Assembly: GCA_014801535.1 (NCBI GenBank)
Contig: JAAVEA010000027.1
Coordinates: 1 to 64,000 of the forward strand
Reading direction: 5' to 3'
Length of the DNA stretch: 64,000 nt
Origin: Bacteroides sp.
Lineage (GTDB): Bacteria; Bacteroidota; Bacteroidia; Bacteroidales; Muribaculaceae
Shown here: positions 7,272 through 18,122 of the stretch, in pieces
How the letters are laid out: each line of letters begins with the position of its first letter
Numbering within the stretch: the first letter of the stretch is position 1
Notes under the pieces: generated by a model
What the model saw: the letters and a program-made list of their open reading frames with translations, nothing else
What the model was told of the DNA's origin: nothing
Database searches by the model: none
Translations under genes and position numbers: made by a program

Positions 7272-8033
7272 ATGAAAAATTCCAATAAATTACGTCATTT
7301 CCTTCTTACCGGTTTATTGTCGGCGACTGCTGTGGCTTTCGCTATAAACGACCATAAAACAGATCCTCAACATTATTTTCTTAATGTTGAGGATGTGCCG
7401 AGTTCGGTAGAGATACTCATGTGTCCGCCCGATACCACTTCAGCTCGTTTCGCCTACGACCGCGAACAATATGAATGGGGAAAAACCATGCGCAATACCC
7501 CACGCGGGAAACAGGCTATAACAGATGCCAATCTCGACTGGTATACCGACTGGGCCGATGACGCTTTCGGAGAGGCTTTCGGCGCACCGATCACAAAAAA
7601 AGAGAATCCCGAATTGCACAAACTAATCTACACAATGGAGAATGATGCCGGGAGTCTCGCCACCTACGAAGCCAAGCAACATTACATGCGCACCCGTCCC
7701 TTTGTGTTCTGGAACGAACACACCTCTACCCCCGATCATGAGGAAGCCTTGGCAAAAAACGGTTCCTACCCTTCGGGACACACAGCAATAGGATGGGCCA
7801 CAGCCCTTGTTCTGGCGGAGATCAACCCTGCAAGAGCAACCGAGATTCTGAAACGCGGATTTGAGTTCGGACAATCACGTGTGATTGTCGGCGCCCACTA
7901 TCAGAGCGATGTCGATGCCGGCCGTGTGATGGGAGCGGCAATTGTCTCAACCCTTCATACCGATAAAGGATTTCAGAAACAACTCGAAAAGGCAAAAAAG
8001 GAATTTGCCAAAAAGAACAGGAAGAAAAAATAA
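7272..8033 (+). CDS. PAP2-family acid phosphatase, secreted
   Basis: A 253-residue class A non-specific acid phosphatase-like protein. It has a signal peptide (about 23 residues) and the complete PAP2 signature in order: 'KQHYMRTRP' (KX6RP), 'SYPSGHT' and 'SRVIVGAHYQSD' (SRX5HX3D), with the two catalytic His present. It should dephosphorylate phosphomonoesters, possibly lipid phosphates, in the periplasm. The C-terminus is strongly basic (KKEFAKKNRKKK). It is the third gene of the acyltransferase/ATP-grasp unit. Confidence 0.85.
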   Translation: MKNSNKLRHFLLTGLLSATAVAFAINDHKTDPQHYFLNVEDVPSSVEILMCPPDTTSARFAYDREQYEWGKTMRNTPRGKQAITDANLDWYTDWADDAFGEAFGAPITKKENPELHKLIYTMENDAGSLATYEAKQHYMRTRPFVFWNEHTSTPDHEEALAKNGSYPSGHTAIGWATALVLAEINPARATEILKRGFEFGQSRVIVGAHYQSDVDAGRVMGAAIVSTLHTDKGFQKQLEKAKKEFAKKNRKKK

Positions 8034-8077
8034 ATTGTCCTTTTCTGAAAGGATAATTCATAATTTGTATTGCATGC

Positions 8078-8125
8078 AATTTGCGCAGTGTGTCACGTAA
8101 AAACACGTAACACACTGCGCAAATT
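8078..8125. repeat. Long inverted repeat (hairpin)
   Basis: Arms of 16 bp, AATTTGCGCAGTGTGT (8078-8093) and its perfect complement (8110-8125), extended inward after one mismatch by ACGT/ACGT. There is no T-run on either side, so it is not a standard terminator. It sits in the 351-bp gap between the PAP2 gene and the giant LRR gene. Confidence 0.8.
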
Positions 8126-8384
8126 GTGATAACTAAGAGTTCAAAATTATTCGATTATTTTTTATACATATTCTTGCATACTTGCTAAATAATGTGTAAT
8201 TTTACGAATATAATTAATCACAAGTGCAAATATATTCCTCTCGCATCATCCGTTTGCGAGAAAATATATTGCATCTTGATGGTGCACTAACCGTTATATT
8301 TTATAATTTTTTTTTGAAACTTAACATCGACATTTTTAGCTTTTTTAATTCATAATATTTTATTTTTTAACTAATTAACCAAGT
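8126..8384 (+). other. AT-rich leader of the giant LRR gene
   Basis: No ORF. The best promoter guess is CTTG at 8173-8176, 20 bp, then TAATTTTA at 8197-8204, one base off the -7 consensus; this would give an unusually long leader of about 170 bases. No clear TAnnTTTG box was found nearer the ATG. Confidence 0.3.
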
Positions 8385-11300
8385 ATGAGAAAGGTTTATT
8401 TAAATCTCACATTTCTCATTGTCGGTTTGATTGCCCTGTTCGGGGGGGGGGTAATTTGTTACCCTATTATTGCTGATACCCGGGCAGACGACATTGGAAT
8501 CGACACGAGCGAGTGTTATGTGATTGAGGTTAACCCTCAGCAGATTCCTACTCTGAGTTACAGCACTAAGACGCAGAGTGGAGTGAAGATGCAGTCGGTG
8601 GATAAATCTGCGACACAACGATACTATTACGTATCGGCGGCCGAATCCCCGACATCGATCTGGATTCCTGCGGGAAGCTCATCGACTGCAAGTTACGCTA
8701 TCAAGTCGATAACCGATGATTCCGGTAAGGAATACACATCGACACCGCGAGGCACCTCATTGAAGACTTCCGATATGACAATCGGCAAGCCTTTGAAGGT
8801 AAACTCGGATAATGTGGATAAAGTCATGACATCCACTCTGACAGTGAATGTTGCCGATGATCCGACAAACATTATCGTTGAGCTATCGACAAGTAATTAT
8901 ACTGTCCAGTATAAGGCGTCGGATTTCACGAGTAACCGTCTCCAGGTTAAATATGATCCAAACAGAGAGACTACCTGGTATGTATATGATGGTAGAATCA
9001 GCACCGGCTATAAGCCGTTTATGGCAAAGCGCGATGGCAATCGTTTGTCAACTTCAATGATTTTCCGCAGATCCACGGACGGTACTAATATGGGTATTTA
9101 TGCATATCCATTGAATCTGACGAAGGGATCAAGCGGTCATACTATCTCAGTATACGCTAATCCTATCCCATGTAATGTTCCCGTACGTTTTGAATTTGAG
9201 AACACCACAGGTAATGAGCAGAACCCGGACTACCTCACCGGAATGGTTGAAGCTATCAGTGTCGATGGAAAGAAACTCACTGACAAATCCTGGCTCAAAT
9301 CCGGTTTTACTGTTCCTAACGGATCATCTGTCAGTCTTTATATAAAGTCTCAGATGAGAGGTGTATGGGAATGGGAAAGCACTACATTCAATGGTACAAA
9401 GCTATCTTCTTCCGGACAGTACTGTGATGTGGAGGCTGAGAGCGCATCGGAGACTCAGGTGTTTAAAATCAGGGGTAAATACAACAGTCCCTGGCGTTAC
9501 ACACTGAAGCTCAACGACCCGACTCACACAAAAGTGATGAACGGATATTCGGAGATTAATATTCCCGAAGGAGCCACCACCTACGAGGGCACAGGTTCCT
9601 ACTCAGCTCCCGCGTTGAAACCGATGGGCAGGAACTCCGAAACGGAGGAGAACCCCGTTGTCGTTACAGAGGTGGAGGTCGATGGCAAGAAGATCGCACT
9701 GGATGCCGACGGCTGCTACACCCCCTCCAAGATGGATGAGGTGATCACCATAAGCACCACGTCTTACAAACGAGAAGTCCCTGTAAGTATCTTCCTGAAC
9801 TCGATGGGTTATGAAGATTACTATATCCTTCTCGATCCGAGAGGACAGACACGTAAGAAAGTAATTCTTAAAGATGGTTGGCAGACAGTCTATGTCAATC
9901 CAAAAGATATGCCGCTCGCATGTCGTACAGGTTCTCCTGCGGTATATCTTAACGGCTCTACTACTGCTTGCGCACTTGATGAGTACGGATATGTGCAGGG
10001 TCTCGAGAAGATCACGGCCAATTCCAAGCTCAAGATCTACCCATATGCGCCCACTTGGCGTACTGTCACCACGAAGATTGAATCCGGGGTGTCGTGTACG
10101 ATCACCGCTGACGATGAAACTGTAACGGCAGGCACAAAGTCATATCCTGAGGGAACGGTGTTGAAATTCACACCCACTCAGAAGACAGGTCTTGTAATTG
10201 AAGATCAGAGCGGAACAGTAATGAGTCAGGCTTCTGATGGTACGTTCACCATTACGGTTGAGAAGGCTAATACCTACACTCTTCACAAGAAGAATGCGGA
10301 GATCACCATCAATGGTGTAACAGGAAATCCTATCCGTATGGAGAATGTAGGTGGTCCGACCAAGACGATGGACTTTACAGCCGCCGGAGGCACATTCACT
10401 TTCCCCTATGTGGAAGGAAGCAACGGATCCTACTCGGCACGATTCAGTGACCCCAAGAATGAGTATAAGGTTTCAGCGATCACAGCCAGTCCTTCCACAG
10501 GATTCTCTTACGATGCCTCCACCTATACCGCTACCGGTATAAAGGACGGCATGACTCTTACTCTGACGGTAGTAAAGGAGGACAAGCCCTACACCTTGAC
10601 CCTGCATATCCCCCCGATTGATGAGGATAATCGCGAGTATGGTTACACGAACCATACGGTCGCGATAAAATATATGTCGGGAGGTAAGGAGACAGTGCAG
10701 ACTCTTCAGCATGATATGGTATTCAAGATGGGGTTGTCTGCGGATAACTTCCCTATTACACTAGGTGGATTTATATTATATAACGGAGAGATCCAAGAAA
10801 CGGAACTCCCGCAATCTTATCTGGTCTATTTAGGAGAAACGTGCAACCAGATAGGAGACTATTATGGAAATGAGGTGACATTCGATACTCCGCAGTCGCT
10901 AACCGGTTGTTTAATTTTTGCCAATAGCCGCAGCGCATACTGTAAAATCTATAACCGTACTAAAGATTTGTGTTATTATAGTATATTGGGTAATTATTCC
11001 TCATATCTATATTCCGGAAATAGTGATGAATGGTCGTTTGAAGTTCGGCCGGGTTCTGTAGTGTCTCTACAGGTTGATAAAACATCAAGGGCGAGATTTT
11101 ACAATAACCAGTATGACAAGTCCGATTGTGTTACGTATTTGCCTGATGAAGATGGCTACATCAATATCAAGATGCCATGGACTGATGAATTCGGTTTTGA
11201 TAGTAAGGTGATAGAAGTTGAGACATTCGAGAAATCGTTATATTTCGAGGAGGAAGACGACTTTTGGTTCCCGAGTGAACAGATTCTGAAAGCCAACGGT

Positions 11301-14300
11301 CAGAGCTATTATCCGGCTATGATGGGTGTGGACCCCATAGCTGTATGTGATACCATCCAGCTTACGTCAATCGTATCTTATCAAGGCGATAGAGTCATAA
11401 CCGGTGTTTATGAGTCAACATCAGGTAAAGTACTTCCTTTCGACCCGGAGACCGGTGTGATCACGGGACTCCGTGAGTTCTACGACTCGGATGATTACGA
11501 TGAAATCGTACTTAAAGTATATAGCGAGCCACTGGACCGTAGCAAAAAACTGAATATTGTCAAAAACGGCACCAACTTCAATGGTCTGGGCTATATACTT
11601 TCCGATAACTCGTTGCTTAGAACTGAAGGGTCCTTTACCGGTGATTTCATAAATTATGGATCAGTCGACGAACCGATCAGACTGTCTGTCCATGCCTGGA
11701 AATATGCTATTGGATCCAACAAGAAAACCTATACTTACGGTAAGGTGTATCTGAACGGTTCTCCGATTACGGAGAAGACCATTACGGGTTATGACTACAA
11801 ACTGTTTGAACTTCCCACCAATATTCCTGACGGATCGGTGGTCCGCTTATTCAGCGCGGCAAGTACAGGCAACGTAACCTATAATGTTTCCGATGGCATC
11901 AATGTCAATATCTATCACGACGCGGAAGCCCAGAGTGATTTCGGCAGCACGTTTACACTTGCCAAAGGAACGGTAATAAAGATAGAACCGGCAGATGGTA
12001 ATGGAGTTGAATATCGTGTGGTTCGCAATGGTGTGCGTATGTCTGCCGAGGAGGCAGCCAAGGGTATCGCAGTGGCAAACGCTACAGAAAGCATCGTCAT
12101 TGAGCCGGCTACCGATGAACTTACATTCAATGCCGGTACAGACACCGACCTGACCAAGCTCAATGTTACCGATAATCTCAATAATCCGTACTCACTTTCC
12201 GGAAATTCGGCGAAAGTTTCATTCAGAGGTGATGTGACTTCGATGAATATTCTCAATACAGATCCCGATTATTATATCTCATCTGTAACAACCGATCCTT
12301 CCAGCATCAAGTATGATGTTGCAACCGGAGAGCTGACCAACCTCACCACGGGTTCACTTACGATCATCAGCAAGCAGCTCGAACGTAAGAATGAGGTTGA
12401 CATCTATGTCGATGGTTCGGAACTTGAGGGTGCTGAGCTCACACTCGGTAACGGCAAGGTGATTGAGACAGGTCAGGCGCTCACTAATGGTTCGCAGACC
12501 ATACAGTTCGCCGAAGAAGATCTTCCGATCATTTTCAAGCTTCCCGATTCCTATTTAGGCGAGGGCGGCACAGTGCCGACTGATCCTTCCAAGATGCCTA
12601 CCGTCATAGTCAACGGGCAGACACTGACCTACTCAGCCGAGCATGGCGGTTACGTCTTCCCCGTAGAGGCATTCTCCGATCCGAGCAATCCTCCCGTGAT
12701 CAAGATTTACCCCGCCGAGCCCGAGCCGACGGAGATAACGTTCATGGTAGAGTCAGGAGTCAACTTCAGCACCGTAGTTGACGGAGACACAGCTAATGCA
12801 TATACCGAGGCCACGACCATCTCGCTGCTTCCCGGCTCCAACGTTGCCATGACCGCCAAATCAAGCAAGAACGGAGAAGAGATCTACCTTGAAAAGGATG
12901 GCGAGACAATTCAGGAAGGCACCGACATCTCTTACAACTTCACCGTAGGCAACGAAGAGCAGACCTTCGCATTCAAGCGCAAGAAGGTGGCCGTTACGGT
13001 CAAAAATGAAGACGCATGGCGCACCATCCACGTGAGCGGAGCAGGTCTTACCTATCCTATGTATGACGCTGCATCCGAACTCGAGTTCCCCGTAGGAACC
13101 ACCGAGCTCTCGCTGCGTTCATCATCCGACACACAGCGTGTGGCCAAGGTAACCAACGCCACCACAGGGGCGGTCATGAACTTCGATCCCGTCACCGGTG
13201 TGGTTACCGGCGTATCCGACCAGATGAAGCTCAACATAGAGATGGGCGACCTCGTGCGCGAGAAGACGCTCACAGTATATTCCGAAGAGGGAGCGGATGC
13301 CATGTCGGCCATCGTCAAGATTGCGTCGGGCAAGGCCGTGGAGAAGAGCATGTATCTCGTCGGCGGCTACCAGACCATGAAATATGACGACAGCGACCTT
13401 CCTGTCGCAGTCAAGAGCGACCAGAAACTCGCCGTGTATATGAACAACGAGCCCGTTGCCTACAACAACGGCGAATACAACTTCTCCGAGCAGCTCCCCG
13501 AGAATCCCGTTCTTAAGGTGTTCTCAGCAGAGCAGCCCACAGTCAACGTCACCTACAAGGTAGACCAGGAAGCGTTCAAAGCCGAGATCACCCACGACCA
13601 TGTCAGCGTGATCGACCATACGCAGGCGCATGAGCTCCTCCCCGGCACCGAGATCGTCTTCACACTCGACTATCTCAACCCCGAGACAGCTAAGCTCGTG
13701 AAGGCACGTCGTGAGGCAGTCCGCGCAGCCGCGGCCGAAGGACGTTCATTCTCCAAGGAGGACACCGAGGTAACCGTCAACGGTGAAGCCCTTGTTCCTC
13801 AGGAAGACGACATCTTCGTATATAAAGTGCTTGCAGAGGATGCGGCAGAAGGACTGAAGTTCGTTGTCAAGCGTCCCGACTATGTTGACGAGTCTACCGG
13901 CATCACCTACTCCGGCGACCGCAAGACAGTGGTATCCGTATCACCCGATGCACCGAGCCCTGTGGTTATCCCCGAAGGTGTAACTACAATCGGCGAAGGC
14001 GCGTTCAAGGGATGCGACAAGATCACATCCGTAGCACTTCCCTCTACCTTGACCACAATCGAGAAGGAGGCGTTCACAGGTTCGGGCCTGACCACAGTCC
14101 AGATCCCCGACAATGTGACCACCATCGGCGAAGGCGCGTTCAAGGATTGCGACGAACTTGAGACAGTAGTTCTCGGCAAGGGCCTCGAAGAGGTTGACCA
14201 GACAGCCTTCGAAGGCTGCGAGAGCCTCGGCAAGTCGATGTATCCCGAGACATTGGGCAAGAGTCCGTTCCCGTCAACAGTTCCCGCCGTACCCTATGAT

Positions 14301-17300
14301 CCGAAGGATGAGCTTACGGTTGACGAAAACGGCTACATCACAGCCGCAGTCAAAGATGAGAAGGGTAATGTTGTGGGCAAGAAACTCGTATCAGTTCCTG
14401 TAACAGCCGGCACAGGCACAGGCGACGGCGACGAGGGTGACGGCACGTTCACACTTCCCACAGATGTGACTGAAATCGGCCCCGGCGCGTTTACAGGTTG
14501 CGACAATATCACCAAGCTGGTGCTTCCTGAAGGCTCCGAGCTCACCGGAATCGGTGAAGGCGCATTCGAGGGTTGCACCAATCTTACGAGCGTTGACCTG
14601 TCAGGAAGCAATACCCTGACCGAGATCGGCGAGAACGCCTTCAAGGGCACCAAGATCACTGAGATCGAACTTCCCGAGAGTCTTGAGAAGATAGGCGGCG
14701 GCGCATTCGAAGGCACCGACCTGACCAGCGTCAAGATCCCCGACAATGTAACCGAGATCGGCGAAGGCGCCTTCAAGGGCTGTACCGAACTTGAGACAGT
14801 AGTACTCGGCACCGGCCTCAAAGAGGTAGGCGAGGATGCGTTCGAGGGCTGCGAGAACCTCGGCAAGTCACTCTATCCCGAGACATTAGGCAAGAGTCCG
14901 TTCCCCGATACGGTTCCCGCCGTTCCTTATGATCCGGAGGATGAACTCGAAATCGATCCCGAGACCGGTATCGTCACCGCACCCGTAAAGGATGAGGAAG
15001 GTAATATAGTGGGCAAGAAACTCGTGCTCGTACCGACCACAGCCGGCAACGGTGAAGGTGAAGGCGAGGAGAAGGGAACATTCACCCTTCCCGAAGGTAT
15101 CACAGAGATAGGTTCCGGCGCGTTCACCGGCTGCGACAACATCGAGAAGGTAATCGTACCCGACGGTGTTGACAAGATCGGCAACGGTGCGTTCGAAGGC
15201 CTCGAGAACCTCAAGGAGGTTGACCTGAGCGAGAACAAGTCGCTCACTGAGATCGGCGAGAACGCCTTCAAGGGCACCTCGATCACCGACATCGAGCTTC
15301 CTGAGACACTTGAGAAGATCGGCGGCGGCGCATTCGAAGGCACCGACCTCAAGACCGTGGTAGTACCCGACAATGTCAAGGAGATCGGCAACGGCGCGTT
15401 CAAGGATATCGACGAACTCGAGAACGTAGTCTTGGGTAACGGCCTCGATCCCGAGAAGACAGGCGAAAACCTCTTCGAAGGAAGCGAGAACATCAAGAAA
15501 GCCGTATATCCCGACACCCTTGAAGAGAAGGTGAAAGGCGGTAGCGGCAATGGCGACGGTGAAGGCACTGGTGACGGCGACGGCAGCGAAAGCAACGGAA
15601 TGTTCCCGCCGACAACAAGCACCGTTAAATATGACCACAACGAGGAGCTCGAGATTGACGAGAACGGCGTGATCACCTCGACCCGCACGGATGAGGAAGG
15701 CAACACCGTCAAGAAACTCGTCTCCGTACCGACCACAACCGGCGAAGGTGAAGGTGAGGATAACACATTCACCGTACCCGACGACATCGACGAGATCGGC
15801 GAAGGCGCGTTCAAGGGTTGCGAGAACATCGAGAAGGTAGTCGTGCCCGACGGTGTAGACAAGATCGGCAACGGCGCGTTCGAAGGCCTTGATAACCTCA
15901 AGGAGGTAGACCTGAGCGGGAACACTACTCTGACCGAGATCGGTGAGAACGCCTTCAAGGGAACCTCGATCACCGAGATCGATCTTCCCGACGGACTTAC
16001 GACAATCGGTTCAGGCGCGTTCGAGGGTTGCGACGAGCTTGAGGAGATCGACATCCCCGAGACCGTTACCGAGATCGGCGAAGGCGCACTCGAAGGCTGC
16101 ACCAGCCTGACATCAGTCACCCTCCCCGACGGCATCACCGAGATCGGCGAGGGCGAGTTCAGCGGCTGCGAGAACCTGACCAACGTCAAGATCCCCGAGA
16201 CCGTAACCGAGATCGGTAACGGCGCCTTCGAGGGATGTACGAACCTTGAGAACGTAGAGATCCCCGAGGGAGTAGACAAGATCGGCGAGAATGCCTTCAA
16301 GGGTTGCGAGAACCTGACCAACGTAACACTACCCGAGAACCTGACAGAGATCGGCAACGGTGCTTTCGAAGGATGTAAGAGTCTTACCGAAGTAGAAGTT
16401 CCCGAGAATGTGGAGAAGGTAGGTGAGAACGCCTTCAAGGGTTGCGAGAACCTGACCAACGTGACACTTCCCGAAAACCTTACAGAGATCGGCGGCAGCG
16501 CCTTCGAGGACTGCAAGAGCCTGACCGAAGTAGAGGTTCCCGAGAATGTGGACAAGGTAGGTGAGAACGCCTTCAAGGGCTGTGAGAACCTGACCAACGT
16601 AACGCTTCCCGATAACCTGACAGAGATCGGCAACGGCGCGTTCGAGGGCTGTACGAACCTTAAGAACGTCGATATACCCGACGGTGTGGAGAAGATCGGC
16701 GAGAACACCTTCAAGGGCTGCGAGAACCTGACCAACGTAACACTTCCCGATAACCTGACAGAGATCGGCGAAGGCGCGTTCGAAGGCTGTAAGAACCTCA
16801 CCGAGGTTGATATCCCCGAGAATGTCACCGAAATAGGTAACGGCGCGTTCAAGGGTTGCGAGAGCCTGACCTCAATCGCTCTGCCCCCGACAATCGACAC
16901 AGTAGGCGAAGACGCGTTCGAGGGATGCAACAACCTCACCAAGTGTGTATATCCCGACACCCTTGACGAACCCTTCGGAGAAGGCGTCGGCGTGAGCTAC
17001 CCGGCTGACGAGGCCATCGTCAGCGAGCAGGGTGTGATCTACACATCGGAGACTGTATATTACGCACCTTCGGATGTGACCGAGTTCAAGGTGCCCGACA
17101 CTGCGACATCGATCATCGGCAACGCCTTCAGCGGCTGTACAGAGCTTAAGGAGGTTGAGCTGCCCCAGACCCTCACCGAACTCGGCGAGAATGCGTTTGC
17201 GGGATGTAGCTCACTGACCGAGATCACTGTCCCCAACCGTGTGACCACTATAGAGAACGGCACATTCAGCGGCTGTAGCTCACTTATCGAAGTGAACCTC

Positions 17301-18122
17301 GGAAGCGCTGTCAACGAGATTGAAGAAGGCGCCTTCGAGGGATGTAGCTCACTCAATGTGATCGACCTCCACTCCGGCGTCCACAGCATCGGCACCGGTG
17401 CATTCCGCAACTGCGGCCTCACTGACATCCACCTCGGCTGCGGCATCGAGCGTATCGCTGACAATGCCTTCGACGGTAACAACATCAGCGAGATAGCCAT
17501 CAGTGCCCAGAGCGCACCGTCGCTCGGAGAGAACGCCTTCGGCGGCAACACCACAGCCCGTCTTCTCGTTCAGGGTAACGCGGCTGCCAATGAATACCGT
17601 CAGGCAGAGGGCTGGAACGTGTTCACACCGGCCCAGATGGTGGTTGCTACAAGCCTCGACAGCTATGATGATGCGGAGATCGACATCAACGAAAACGACG
17701 GTATCCAGCTCCACGTTGTCATGAACCCGGCCAATGCGACCATGGGCAAGATCTTCTGGGAATCTACACATCCGGATCATGTCACGGTTGACAACAAGGG
17801 CTACGTGACGCTCAACGGATCTTCGTCGGCACATGCGCGCAGTCTTGAGCCGCGTGAGATGACAACCATCACCATCACCGCCAAGACGATGTATGCCAAC
17901 GGACCCGTACGCGAGTATGTGCTCCACCGCGACATATCGACAGGTGTATGGGAGATTGACCTTGGCGAGACCATTGATGCCGATGAGCTGGCACGCCTGC
18001 TGAAGGAAGGCGCTGTCTACACTCTCGGCGGTCTCAAAGTGGCTCCCGGAACCCGCAGCCTTGATCCGGGCGTATATATCGTACGCACCTCGGGCAAGAG
18101 CCGCAAGGTGGTTGTGAAATAA
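8385..18122 (+). CDS. Giant secreted BspA-like leucine-rich-repeat protein
   Basis: A 3,245-residue surface or secreted protein. Residues 1-30 form a signal peptide whose codons contain a run of ten G (8442-8451). Residues about 35-1,840 hold several related beta-rich modules (starting near 465, 1,051, 1,337 and 1,626, each with 'K.Y..G.QT..' and 'V..NG.......' segments). Residues about 1,845-3,060 are BspA/TpLRR-type LRR_5 repeats ('IGEGAFKGCENLTNVTLP'), interrupted three times by acidic Gly-rich linkers ('GTGTGDGDEGDG', 'GEGEGEEKG') and 'DENGVIT...GNTVKKLVSVP' segments. A Big2-like domain ('NPANATMGKIFWESTHPDHVTV') follows, then a sorting-type tail 'PGVYIVRTSGKSRKVVVK'. BspA relatives act in adhesion to host proteins, mucin or other bacteria; that role here is inference. 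A strong terminator follows. Confidence 0.9.
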   Translation: MRKVYLNLTFLIVGLIALFGGGVICYPIIADTRADDIGIDTSECYVIEVNPQQIPTLSYSTKTQSGVKMQSVDKSATQRYYYVSAAESPTSIWIPAGSSSTASYAIKSITDDSGKEYTSTPRGTSLKTSDMTIGKPLKVNSDNVDKVMTSTLTVNVADDPTNIIVELSTSNYTVQYKASDFTSNRLQVKYDPNRETTWYVYDGRISTGYKPFMAKRDGNRLSTSMIFRRSTDGTNMGIYAYPLNLTKGSSGHTISVYANPIPCNVPVRFEFENTTGNEQNPDYLTGMVEAISVDGKKLTDKSWLKSGFTVPNGSSVSLYIKSQMRGVWEWESTTFNGTKLSSSGQYCDVEAESASETQVFKIRGKYNSPWRYTLKLNDPTHTKVMNGYSEINIPEGATTYEGTGSYSAPALKPMGRNSETEENPVVVTEVEVDGKKIALDADGCYTPSKMDEVITISTTSYKREVPVSIFLNSMGYEDYYILLDPRGQTRKKVILKDGWQTVYVNPKDMPLACRTGSPAVYLNGSTTACALDEYGYVQGLEKITANSKLKIYPYAPTWRTVTTKIESGVSCTITADDETVTAGTKSYPEGTVLKFTPTQKTGLVIEDQSGTVMSQASDGTFTITVEKANTYTLHKKNAEITINGVTGNPIRMENVGGPTKTMDFTAAGGTFTFPYVEGSNGSYSARFSDPKNEYKVSAITASPSTGFSYDASTYTATGIKDGMTLTLTVVKEDKPYTLTLHIPPIDEDNREYGYTNHTVAIKYMSGGKETVQTLQHDMVFKMGLSADNFPITLGGFILYNGEIQETELPQSYLVYLGETCNQIGDYYGNEVTFDTPQSLTGCLIFANSRSAYCKIYNRTKDLCYYSILGNYSSYLYSGNSDEWSFEVRPGSVVSLQVDKTSRARFYNNQYDKSDCVTYLPDEDGYINIKMPWTDEFGFDSKVIEVETFEKSLYFEEEDDFWFPSEQILKANGQSYYPAMMGVDPIAVCDTIQLTSIVSYQGDRVITGVYESTSGKVLPFDPETGVITGLREFYDSDDYDEIVLKVYSEPLDRSKKLNIVKNGTNFNGLGYILSDNSLLRTEGSFTGDFINYGSVDEPIRLSVHAWKYAIGSNKKTYTYGKVYLNGSPITEKTITGYDYKLFELPTNIPDGSVVRLFSAASTGNVTYNVSDGINVNIYHDAEAQSDFGSTFTLAKGTVIKIEPADGNGVEYRVVRNGVRMSAEEAAKGIAVANATESIVIEPATDELTFNAGTDTDLTKLNVTDNLNNPYSLSGNSAKVSFRGDVTSMNILNTDPDYYISSVTTDPSSIKYDVATGELTNLTTGSLTIISKQLERKNEVDIYVDGSELEGAELTLGNGKVIETGQALTNGSQTIQFAEEDLPIIFKLPDSYLGEGGTVPTDPSKMPTVIVNGQTLTYSAEHGGYVFPVEAFSDPSNPPVIKIYPAEPEPTEITFMVESGVNFSTVVDGDTANAYTEATTISLLPGSNVAMTAKSSKNGEEIYLEKDGETIQEGTDISYNFTVGNEEQTFAFKRKKVAVTVKNEDAWRTIHVSGAGLTYPMYDAASELEFPVGTTELSLRSSSDTQRVAKVTNATTGAVMNFDPVTGVVTGVSDQMKLNIEMGDLVREKTLTVYSEEGADAMSAIVKIASGKAVEKSMYLVGGYQTMKYDDSDLPVAVKSDQKLAVYMNNEPVAYNNGEYNFSEQLPENPVLKVFSAEQPTVNVTYKVDQEAFKAEITHDHVSVIDHTQAHELLPGTEIVFTLDYLNPETAKLVKARREAVRAAAAEGRSFSKEDTEVTVNGEALVPQEDDIFVYKVLAEDAAEGLKFVVKRPDYVDESTGITYSGDRKTVVSVSPDAPSPVVIPEGVTTIGEGAFKGCDKITSVALPSTLTTIEKEAFTGSGLTTVQIPDNVTTIGEGAFKDCDELETVVLGKGLEEVDQTAFEGCESLGKSMYPETLGKSPFPSTVPAVPYDPKDELTVDENGYITAAVKDEKGNVVGKKLVSVPVTAGTGTGDGDEGDGTFTLPTDVTEIGPGAFTGCDNITKLVLPEGSELTGIGEGAFEGCTNLTSVDLSGSNTLTEIGENAFKGTKITEIELPESLEKIGGGAFEGTDLTSVKIPDNVTEIGEGAFKGCTELETVVLGTGLKEVGEDAFEGCENLGKSLYPETLGKSPFPDTVPAVPYDPEDELEIDPETGIVTAPVKDEEGNIVGKKLVLVPTTAGNGEGEGEEKGTFTLPEGITEIGSGAFTGCDNIEKVIVPDGVDKIGNGAFEGLENLKEVDLSENKSLTEIGENAFKGTSITDIELPETLEKIGGGAFEGTDLKTVVVPDNVKEIGNGAFKDIDELENVVLGNGLDPEKTGENLFEGSENIKKAVYPDTLEEKVKGGSGNGDGEGTGDGDGSESNGMFPPTTSTVKYDHNEELEIDENGVITSTRTDEEGNTVKKLVSVPTTTGEGEGEDNTFTVPDDIDEIGEGAFKGCENIEKVVVPDGVDKIGNGAFEGLDNLKEVDLSGNTTLTEIGENAFKGTSITEIDLPDGLTTIGSGAFEGCDELEEIDIPETVTEIGEGALEGCTSLTSVTLPDGITEIGEGEFSGCENLTNVKIPETVTEIGNGAFEGCTNLENVEIPEGVDKIGENAFKGCENLTNVTLPENLTEIGNGAFEGCKSLTEVEVPENVEKVGENAFKGCENLTNVTLPENLTEIGGSAFEDCKSLTEVEVPENVDKVGENAFKGCENLTNVTLPDNLTEIGNGAFEGCTNLKNVDIPDGVEKIGENTFKGCENLTNVTLPDNLTEIGEGAFEGCKNLTEVDIPENVTEIGNGAFKGCESLTSIALPPTIDTVGEDAFEGCNNLTKCVYPDTLDEPFGEGVGVSYPADEAIVSEQGVIYTSETVYYAPSDVTEFKVPDTATSIIGNAFSGCTELKEVELPQTLTELGENAFAGCSSLTEITVPNRVTTIENGTFSGCSSLIEVNLGSAVNEIEEGAFEGCSSLNVIDLHSGVHSIGTGAFRNCGLTDIHLGCGIERIADNAFDGNNISEIAISAQSAPSLGENAFGGNTTARLLVQGNAAANEYRQAEGWNVFTPAQMVVATSLDSYDDAEIDINENDGIQLHVVMNPANATMGKIFWESTHPDHVTVDNKGYVTLNGSSSAHARSLEPREMTTITITAKTMYANGPVREYVLHRDISTGVWEIDLGETIDADELARLLKEGAVYTLGGLKVAPGTRSLDPGVYIVRTSGKSRKVVVK
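8442..8451 (+). repeat. Homopolymeric G10 tract inside the signal-peptide codons
   Basis: Ten consecutive G encode the GGG of 'LFGGGVICY'. Gain or loss of one or two bases would shift the frame near codon 22 and stop production of the whole 3,245-residue protein. Such tracts are classic sites of slipped-strand phase variation. Confidence 0.85.
16281..16832 (+). repeat. Four tandem 138-bp units inside the LRR region
   Basis: Units start at 16281, 16419, 16557 and 16695, exactly 138 bp (46 residues, two LRRs) apart. Each reads approximately 'xGENAFKGCENLTNVTLPxN' and then 'LTEIGxGAFEGCxxLxxVxx'. DNA identity between neighbours is very high, which favours recombination and copy-number change. 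Confidence 0.85.

What the first reader, a model, noticed from the sequence alone, without database searches (positions are those of the whole stretch)
8442..8451. G10 tract could switch a 3,245-residue surface protein on and off
Ten G in a row lie in the codons of the signal peptide, near codon 20. Any change not divisible by three frameshifts the whole protein. Slipped-strand phase variation at poly-G is well known for surface proteins of other bacteria (for example Campylobacter and Neisseria); in Bacteroidales, phase variation is mostly known from DNA inversions. In the present sequence the tract is in the ON frame.
Basis: partly seen in the sequence, partly recalled or inferred. Interest (0 to 1): 0.78.

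Follow-up and report, generated by a model that had tools for sequence, protein, structure and literature searches.

The report
Poly-G switch in surface-protein signal peptide
A run of ten G's in the export signal of a giant gut-bacterial surface protein is very probably a slippage switch, because three of four relatives in other species keep a G-run at the same spot, at lengths that shift the protein out of frame.

Summary
G10 lies at 8442-8451, from codon 20 of a 3,245-codon ORF (8385-18122), in frame, and is the only G/C run of 7 or more in the window. Comparison across species supports phase variation. Four homologues spanning the N-terminal 1,400 residues were found. Three carry a homopolymer at the same place (G8, G9, G7); their ATG frames close after 22, 22 and 33 codons while body frames of 2,734, 2,736+ and 1,874 codons stay open. 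The fourth codes Gly-Gly-Gly as GGAGGCGGG and is in frame. GGG is only 1.9-4.3% of glycine codons in the five bodies. Similar signal-peptide G8-G10 tracts open other exported-looking proteins of the family, some in frame and some not. In the genus, poly-G also sits near promoter -7 boxes at a preferred distance. No reads or same-species strains were available, so slippage itself is inferred. Best reading: a contingency locus working like Campylobacter/Neisseria poly-G switches, in an order known for DNA inversions. The searches made listed no earlier report.

The parts
8442..8451 (+). G10 homopolymer, codons 20-23 (GGG GGG GGG G..), present state in frame (ON)
8385..8486 (+). Signal-peptide-like N-terminus MRKVYLNLTFLIVGLIALFGGGVICYPIIADTRA; cleavage after TRA judged by eye
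   Evidence: no signal-peptide program was available
8385..18122 (+). ORF of 3,245 codons: N-terminal part (620 residues after the tract predicted nearly all beta), BspA-type LRRs, C-terminal sorting-like tail
8452..8454 (+). TAA directly after the tract: immediate stop in one shifted frame; TAATTT also follows the tract in two homologues (G025, G018)
14505..16664 (+). BspA-type leucine-rich repeats (LRR_5 PF13306, LRR_8, LRR_4; span of the best stretches listed, residues 2041-2760; further LRR_5 stretches are not located)
   Evidence: PDB relatives by sequence
18054..18119 (+). C-terminal tail resembling the T9SS type A sorting domain, below cut-off (13 of 23 bits)
8077..8126 (.). 22-nt-arm inverted repeat between the upstream gene and this one, likely terminator; no invertible-promoter arms seen in 7800-8700, the only stretch scanned

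Best explanation
The tract is a contingency (phase-variation) locus. Replication slippage in the G-run changes its length. At lengths in the ON class the ribosome reads through the signal peptide into the 3.2-kilo-residue LRR surface protein. At other lengths it stops at or soon after the tract and no exported protein is made. The assembled cell type is ON. Shown here: tract, frame, conserved position, out-of-frame lengths with open bodies in three other species, and rarity of GGG elsewhere in the genes. Inferred: slippage in living cells, its rate, surface location, and selection (phage, antibody or adhesion trade-offs).
For: Four homologues (28-41% identity to the window over 620 aa). Tract states: window G10 in frame; G025 = L071 G8, ATG frame closed at 22 codons, body 2,734 codons; G018 = L070 G9, closed at 22 codons, body 2,736 to the contig edge; L072 G7, closed at 33 codons, body 1,874 (a shorter protein); G071 mixed glycine codons, in frame, 2,413 codons to the contig edge. 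The three closed ones have no ATG, GTG or TTG in the body frame between the preceding stop and the tract. GGG is 1.9-4.3% of Gly codons in the five bodies. Same design in other proteins: an M-K/R-K start then G8+ within 25-55 nt gives 43 matches, 35 distinct tracts, in 32 of 397 family genomes, against 10 matches of the reversed control. I examined 33 of the 35; 11 open an ORF over 100 aa, 8 in frame and 3 not; one of the in-frame ones, an unrelated lipoprotein-like gene, stands on a 3.3-Mb contig. Of the genome's five tracts of 8 or more, one lies in a type I R-M specificity ORF (in frame) and one near the N-terminus of a CHASE2 ORF (not in frame).
Against: All homologues are single assemblies, at least three labelled MAG; homopolymer lengths could be wrong by one. 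No read-level or same-species length variation was seen. One homologue (G071) does without the homopolymer. The homologue set is small: a match in 10 of 111 genus genomes at E 1e-10, the window's own included, and over the whole profile in only 4 of them. 22 of the 33 family tracts examined do not open a clear signal-peptide ORF. In nine of the other signal-peptide genes GGG is less rare (7.7% of Gly codons overall). An order-2 Markov model produces such a run in 3% of windows.
Confidence: 0.85

Rival explanations
1. Assembly or sequencing error: the true tract is one in-frame length everywhere, and the out-of-frame relatives are miscounted homopolymers.
For: The named homologues are metagenome assemblies (record titles); the bank-vole project, to which two probably belong, used paired-end reads (passages of PMC7511399).
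Against: The homopolymer itself is conserved in 4 of 5 genes despite rare GGG usage, and error would not create it. Even G7 (L072) is out of frame, a length that short reads handle well (recalled). A G10 tract in an unrelated signal-peptide gene stands on a 3.3-Mb contig (G222).
Confidence: 0.08
2. The tract acts at the RNA level: transcriptional slippage or ribosomal frameshifting on the G-run gives a fixed mixture of full-length and truncated product, whatever the DNA length.
For: A tract with an early stop in the shifted frame is conserved, which would also suit leaky expression from out-of-frame lengths.
Against: Does not by itself explain differing tract lengths between relatives; nothing here tests RNA. 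May coexist with DNA slippage.
Confidence: 0.1
3. Decay: the out-of-frame relatives are pseudogenes and the G-run is only a weak spot.
For: 3 of 4 relatives are out of frame at the tract.
Against: Their bodies run 1,874 to 2,736 codons without a stop, which decaying genes would hardly keep; the ATG frame is broken at the tract in all three.
Confidence: 0.04
4. Chance: three GGG codons met in a Gly-Gly-Gly stretch needed by the signal peptide.
For: The peptide GGG(V) is kept in the homologue without the homopolymer; Markov chance is 3% per window.
Against: GGG is about 2% of glycine codons in the gene; about 1e-5 at the site, and a homopolymer recurs there in three relatives.
Confidence: 0.03

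Closest known systems
Poly-G/C contingency loci of Campylobacter (and Helicobacter, Neisseria)
   Same: Homopolymeric G tract of 7-11 inside or just before a surface-structure gene; lengths put the gene in or out of frame; several loci per genome, here including an R-M specificity ORF (Campylobacter background from starts of abstracts in the listings).
   Different: Bacteroidales host; tract in signal peptides of LRR and T9SS-like proteins; few tracts (5 of 8 or more in a 66%-complete assembly); switching not observed.
Neisseria opa genes (recalled, no call)
   Same: Repeat within signal-peptide codons gives translational ON/OFF.
   Different: Pentameric repeats and beta-barrel adhesins there; mononucleotide repeat and giant LRR protein here.
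Invertible promoters and invertible genes of Bacteroides (passages of PMC11868660)
   Same: Phase variation of surface components in gut Bacteroidales.
   Different: Site-specific inversion by a recombinase; no such arms seen in 7800-8700.
BspA-type LRR surface proteins
   Same: LRR_5 repeats at E 9.9e-294; PDB LRR relatives 4fs7, 4gt6 by sequence.
   Different: 3,245 residues, with an N-terminal part (first 1,372 residues tested) that has no Pfam family above its gathering score; poly-G in the signal peptide.
Replication-slippage pilus switch of Bifidobacterium breve (PMC9187656, listing and start of abstract)
   Same: Slippage ON/OFF of a surface structure in a gut commensal.
   Different: Bifidobacterial sortase-dependent pili; studied by deep sequencing there (title).

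Membership tests
Homopolymer (slipped-strand) phase-variable locus | Unusually long homopolymer in coding or promoter region | tested here: met
   G10, only G/C run of 7 or more in the window
Homopolymer (slipped-strand) phase-variable locus | Length change shifts the frame to an early stop | tested here: met
   Other frames close 0 and 7 codons after the tract
Homopolymer (slipped-strand) phase-variable locus | Tract kept at the same place in homologues with differing length and frame | tested here: met
   3 of 4 homologues: G8, G9, G7, all out of frame with open bodies; 1 of 4 lacks the homopolymer
Homopolymer (slipped-strand) phase-variable locus | Length variation within a strain or species | not testable with these tools
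   One genome per species and no reads; two viral-contig scans gave no copy
Homopolymer (slipped-strand) phase-variable locus | Expression follows tract length | not testable with these tools
   Needs bench work
BspA-type LRR surface protein | LRR_5 repeats above Pfam gathering score | tested here: met
   956.8 bits against 27.7
T9SS type A cargo | C-terminal sorting domain TIGR04183 over cut-off | tested here: not met
   13 bits against 23; similar tail by eye only
T9SS type A cargo | Secretion machinery in the genome | tested here: inconclusive
   One PorV-family protein over cut-off (over cut-off in 0 of 14 control genomes) and 21 tail matches at E up to 0.1, 9 over cut-off (control matches in 6 of 14, over cut-off in 1); no other component was searched
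Invertible-DNA phase variation | Inverted repeats flanking a promoter upstream of the gene | tested here: not met
   Three inverted-repeat pairs in 7800-8700: a close 22-nt hairpin and two A/T-rich pairs; none looks like recombinase arms; a wider stretch was not scanned

The most novel reading that the evidence does not exclude
This lineage of gut Bacteroidales runs a genus-wide poly-G phase-variation programme for its surface in two modes: G-runs inside signal peptides (translation), and G-runs 21-23 nt upstream of the TTTGC of the -7 box, behind two TTAAC motifs exactly 10 bp apart (transcription). One homologue of this protein (G071) may have exchanged the first mode for the second: its signal-peptide homopolymer is broken by synonymous codons, while a G9 with a TAnnTTTGC (TTTGC 29 nt downstream) lies 359 nt upstream of its ATG.
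Probability: 0.5. Interest if true: 0.8.

Novelty: new member of a known kind. Interest (0 to 1): 0.64.

Why it matters
The passages I saw of a 2025 review name invertase-mediated switching for Bacteroides (PMC11868660), and the usual finder for it looks for inverted repeats (recalled). A slippage system would be missed that way, and in an assembly it would look like a merely frameshifted gene. If real, surface LRR proteins, lipoproteins and an R-M specificity gene of gut Bacteroidales flip independently, so bulk genomes misreport which surface proteins are expressed. It is directly testable on existing read sets.

Tried and rejected
Tried without result: same-species copies in viral contigs (0 matches; 27 stretches matched a pattern but none encodes a relative). 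Profile search of the N-terminal part in the PDB gave only 8 marginal matches, all one potassium-channel-interacting protein (E 0.023-0.046). A predicted fold of 620 residues after the tract (mean pLDDT 85.1, pTM 0.56, 5-row alignment) is nearly all beta. Foldseek lists multi-domain pilins and adhesins first (best E 4e-9) but with TM-scores of 0.1-0.2, so I take it only as 'tandem beta-domain stalk-like'.

Rejected: a mobile-element target or hairpin explanation of the recurring G-run + TAA. The short GGGTAA-TTTG-TTACCC repeat beside the tract (by eye) is shared by G025 but not clearly by the rest. Rejected: invertible promoter (7800-8700 only). Rejected: that G8+TAA is purely a coding signature, since the promoter class shows it too. 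The reversed control is not fully neutral, because -7 boxes and stop codons are themselves direction-specific.

Names: the family of the window genome is my inference (probably Muribaculaceae); no tool named it. The relatives' record titles read 'uncultured Porphyromonadaceae bacterium' and 'Bacteroides sp. isolate Mgla_MAG'. Linking Mgla to the bank-vole project (PMC7511399) is inferred; the record prefix JAAVCU was not found in its text. Literature: searches (listings and starts of abstracts only, apart from passages of PMC11868660 and PMC7511399) listed no report of homopolymer phase variation in Bacteroidales; the library lacks most subscription journals and all bioRxiv preprints.

Full report
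Observation. The sequence at 8442-8451 is exactly ten G. The ORF from ATG 8385 to 18122 has 3,245 codons and is in frame through the tract. The tract begins at codon 20 in MRKVYLNLTFLIVGLIALFGGGVICYPIIADTRA, which by eye is a signal peptide with the three glycines at the end of its hydrophobic core. It is the only G/C run of 7 or more among the 64,000 bases. One shifted frame stops at the TAA directly after the tract and the other 7 codons later.

Chance. Base composition alone does not make it impossible: 6 of 200 order-2 Markov windows hold a G/C run of 10 or more, 59 of 200 one of 8 or more. The actual spectrum is steeper: 191, 36 and 4 runs of length 4, 5 and 6, none of 7-9, then one of 10. 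The gene uses GGG for 6 of 313 glycines outside its first 40 codons; recoding the site with that usage gives G>=10 about once in 100,000. With window-wide usage the first 40 codons reach it at 0.0023, and the whole gene holds some G/C run of 10 or more at 0.009. The assembly has five runs of 8 or more, against 78 of length 6 and 5 of length 7 in the first 100 of 212 G6 matches listed (counted by hand).

Homologues. The first search with the 640-residue N-terminus matched 3 of 61 genomes: the own genome, G025 and G018. In G025 the start of the protein matched in a different frame from the rest, which first revealed the shift. A profile of three (A1) matched 10 of 111 genus genomes at E 1e-10; matches over the whole profile are G025, G018 and G071 besides the window. 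A named collection gave 3 loci: L072, new, and L070 and L071, the contigs of G018 and G025. Identities to the window over 620 aa are 28-41%.

Frames in the homologues. G025 has G8 and its ATG frame ends after 22 codons; the body frame is 2,734 codons to a stop. G018 has G9, ends after 22 codons, and the body frame is 2,736 codons to the contig edge. L072 has G7, ends after 33 codons, and the body frame is 1,874 codons to a stop, so this protein is shorter. None of the three has an ATG, GTG or TTG in the body frame between the preceding stop and the tract. G071 codes the glycines with mixed codons (GGA GGC GGG) and is in frame for 2,413 codons to the contig edge. GGG makes up 1.9 (window), 2.6 (G025), 4.3 (G018), 2.2 (L072) and 3.0% (G071) of glycine codons in the bodies. 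So the homopolymer was kept, or remade, at one point of one signal peptide in four of five species, while lengths and frames differ and bodies stay open.

What the protein is. Pfam gives BspA-type LRRs (LRR_5, E 9.9e-294). The first 1,372 residues have no Pfam family above its gathering score. A predicted fold of 620 residues after the tract is almost wholly beta (pLDDT 85.1), with weak, multi-domain similarity to Gram-positive pilins and adhesins (TM 0.1-0.2). The last residues resemble the type A sorting tail but score 13 of the 23 bits needed. The genome has one PorV-family protein over cut-off and 21 tail matches at E up to 0.1, 9 over cut-off; the same tail model also matches 6 of 14 control genomes, 1 over cut-off, so the weak ones may be chance. 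A large LRR adhesin-like surface protein is the likely reading; its ligand is unknown. Neighbours are ordinary: PAP2, ATP-grasp and GNAT proteins upstream, aromatic-amino-acid genes downstream.

How general. In 397 genomes of the family, M-K/R-K starts followed within 25-55 nt by G8 or more give 43 matches, which I count as 35 distinct tracts in 32 genomes; the pattern read backwards gives 10 matches. I examined 33 of the 35 (30, 3 more; G337:C76 and G151 were not looked at). Eleven open an ORF over 100 aa through a signal-peptide-like start: 8 in frame (window, G158, G179 twice, G222, G287, G176 twice) and 3 not (G018, G231, G258). I left out G143 as doubtful, and G344, whose ATG frame ends before the tract although 113 codons are open after it. 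Two of the eleven (window, G018) are the homologues above. Of the other nine, one has a type A tail over cut-off (G179:C56), two near or below it (G179:C3, G258), one BACON domains (G222) and one LRR_5 (G287, cut by the contig edge); G158 has no Pfam or NCBIfam match. GGG is 7.7% of glycine codons in these nine bodies, less extreme than in the LRR family. The other 22 examined tracts open no such ORF; several are promoter-like.

Other tracts of the same genome. C24: G8 at residue 176 of a 352-residue open frame of a type I R-M specificity gene, in frame. C5: ten C near the N-terminus of a CHASE2 ORF, where the ATG frame ends some 80 codons in and the domain lies in another frame. C2: G9 upstream of a C10 peptidase with LRR_5. 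C4: G8 upstream of a 714-residue protein without a Pfam match at 0.001.

A promoter class. G8-TAA occurs in 80 of 101 genus genomes; 186 matches against 52 of the reversed control (sums of the table, checked). G8-TAA-N12-28-TTTGC gives 37 matches in 31 of 111 genomes, control 0; two of the 37 are one tract and some, such as the CHASE2 tract of the own genome, are coding. The gap from tract to TTTGC is 21-23 nt in 19 of 37, and 24 of 37 end in TAnnTTTGC. In 30 loci read, 15 have two TTAAC motifs just before the G-run, in all 15 exactly 10 bp apart and ending 2-5 nt before it; 2 have one and 13 none. By eye at least 14 of the 30 lead into a protein with a signal-peptide-like start. TTAAC-N0-6-G8 gives 77 matches against 8 in 111 genus genomes but 32 against 24 in 119 genomes across the order. 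This looks like transcriptional phase variation special to this lineage; it is described here as a side result. The control is imperfect, since promoters are directional.

Mechanism and limits. The simplest account is replication slippage in the G-run with translation as read-out. Transcriptional slippage could add leakiness. Assembly error cannot explain the conserved homopolymer but could misstate single lengths. No within-species data were reachable (one genome per species).

Known or new. Homopolymer contingency loci are classical in Campylobacter, Helicobacter and Neisseria. For Bacteroides the passages I saw of a 2025 review name inversion systems. My searches listed no paper on homopolymer phase variation in Bacteroidales. 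I therefore call it a new member of a known kind, in a lineage where it was not expected.

Noticed in passing
Genus-wide, e.g. L114-L143; own genome G000:C2:11086-11094 (L020:2087-2095): Poly-G at a preferred distance (21-23 nt in 19 of 37) upstream of TTTGC, often of a TAnnTTTGC -7 box (24 of 37), and in 15 of 30 loci read preceded by two TTAAC motifs exactly 10 bp apart; 37 matches against 0 for the reversed pattern. Possible transcriptional phase variation.
   Followed up: partly
L057:1049-1057 (G071:C25): The homologue whose signal-peptide homopolymer is broken has a G9 359 nt upstream of its ATG, with TTTGC of a TAnnTTTGC 29 nt further on: possible exchange of translational for transcriptional switching.
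   Followed up: partly
L023 (G000:C24:19015-19022): G8 in the middle of a type I R-M specificity ORF next to an N6 methylase gene, in frame: candidate phase-variable methylation.
   Followed up: partly
L022:2411-2420 (G000:C5): C10 near the N-terminus of a CHASE2-domain ORF, with the ATG frame closing shortly after: candidate OFF-state gene.
   Followed up: partly
window 8449-8464: GGGTAA-TTTG-TTACCC inverted repeat overlapping the end of the tract; G025 has a similar GGGGTAA-TTTA-TTACCCC (by eye). Meaning unknown.
   Followed up: no
window 8077-8126: Near-perfect 22-nt-arm hairpin CAATTTGCGCAGTGTGTCACGT, likely the terminator of the upstream gene.
   Followed up: no
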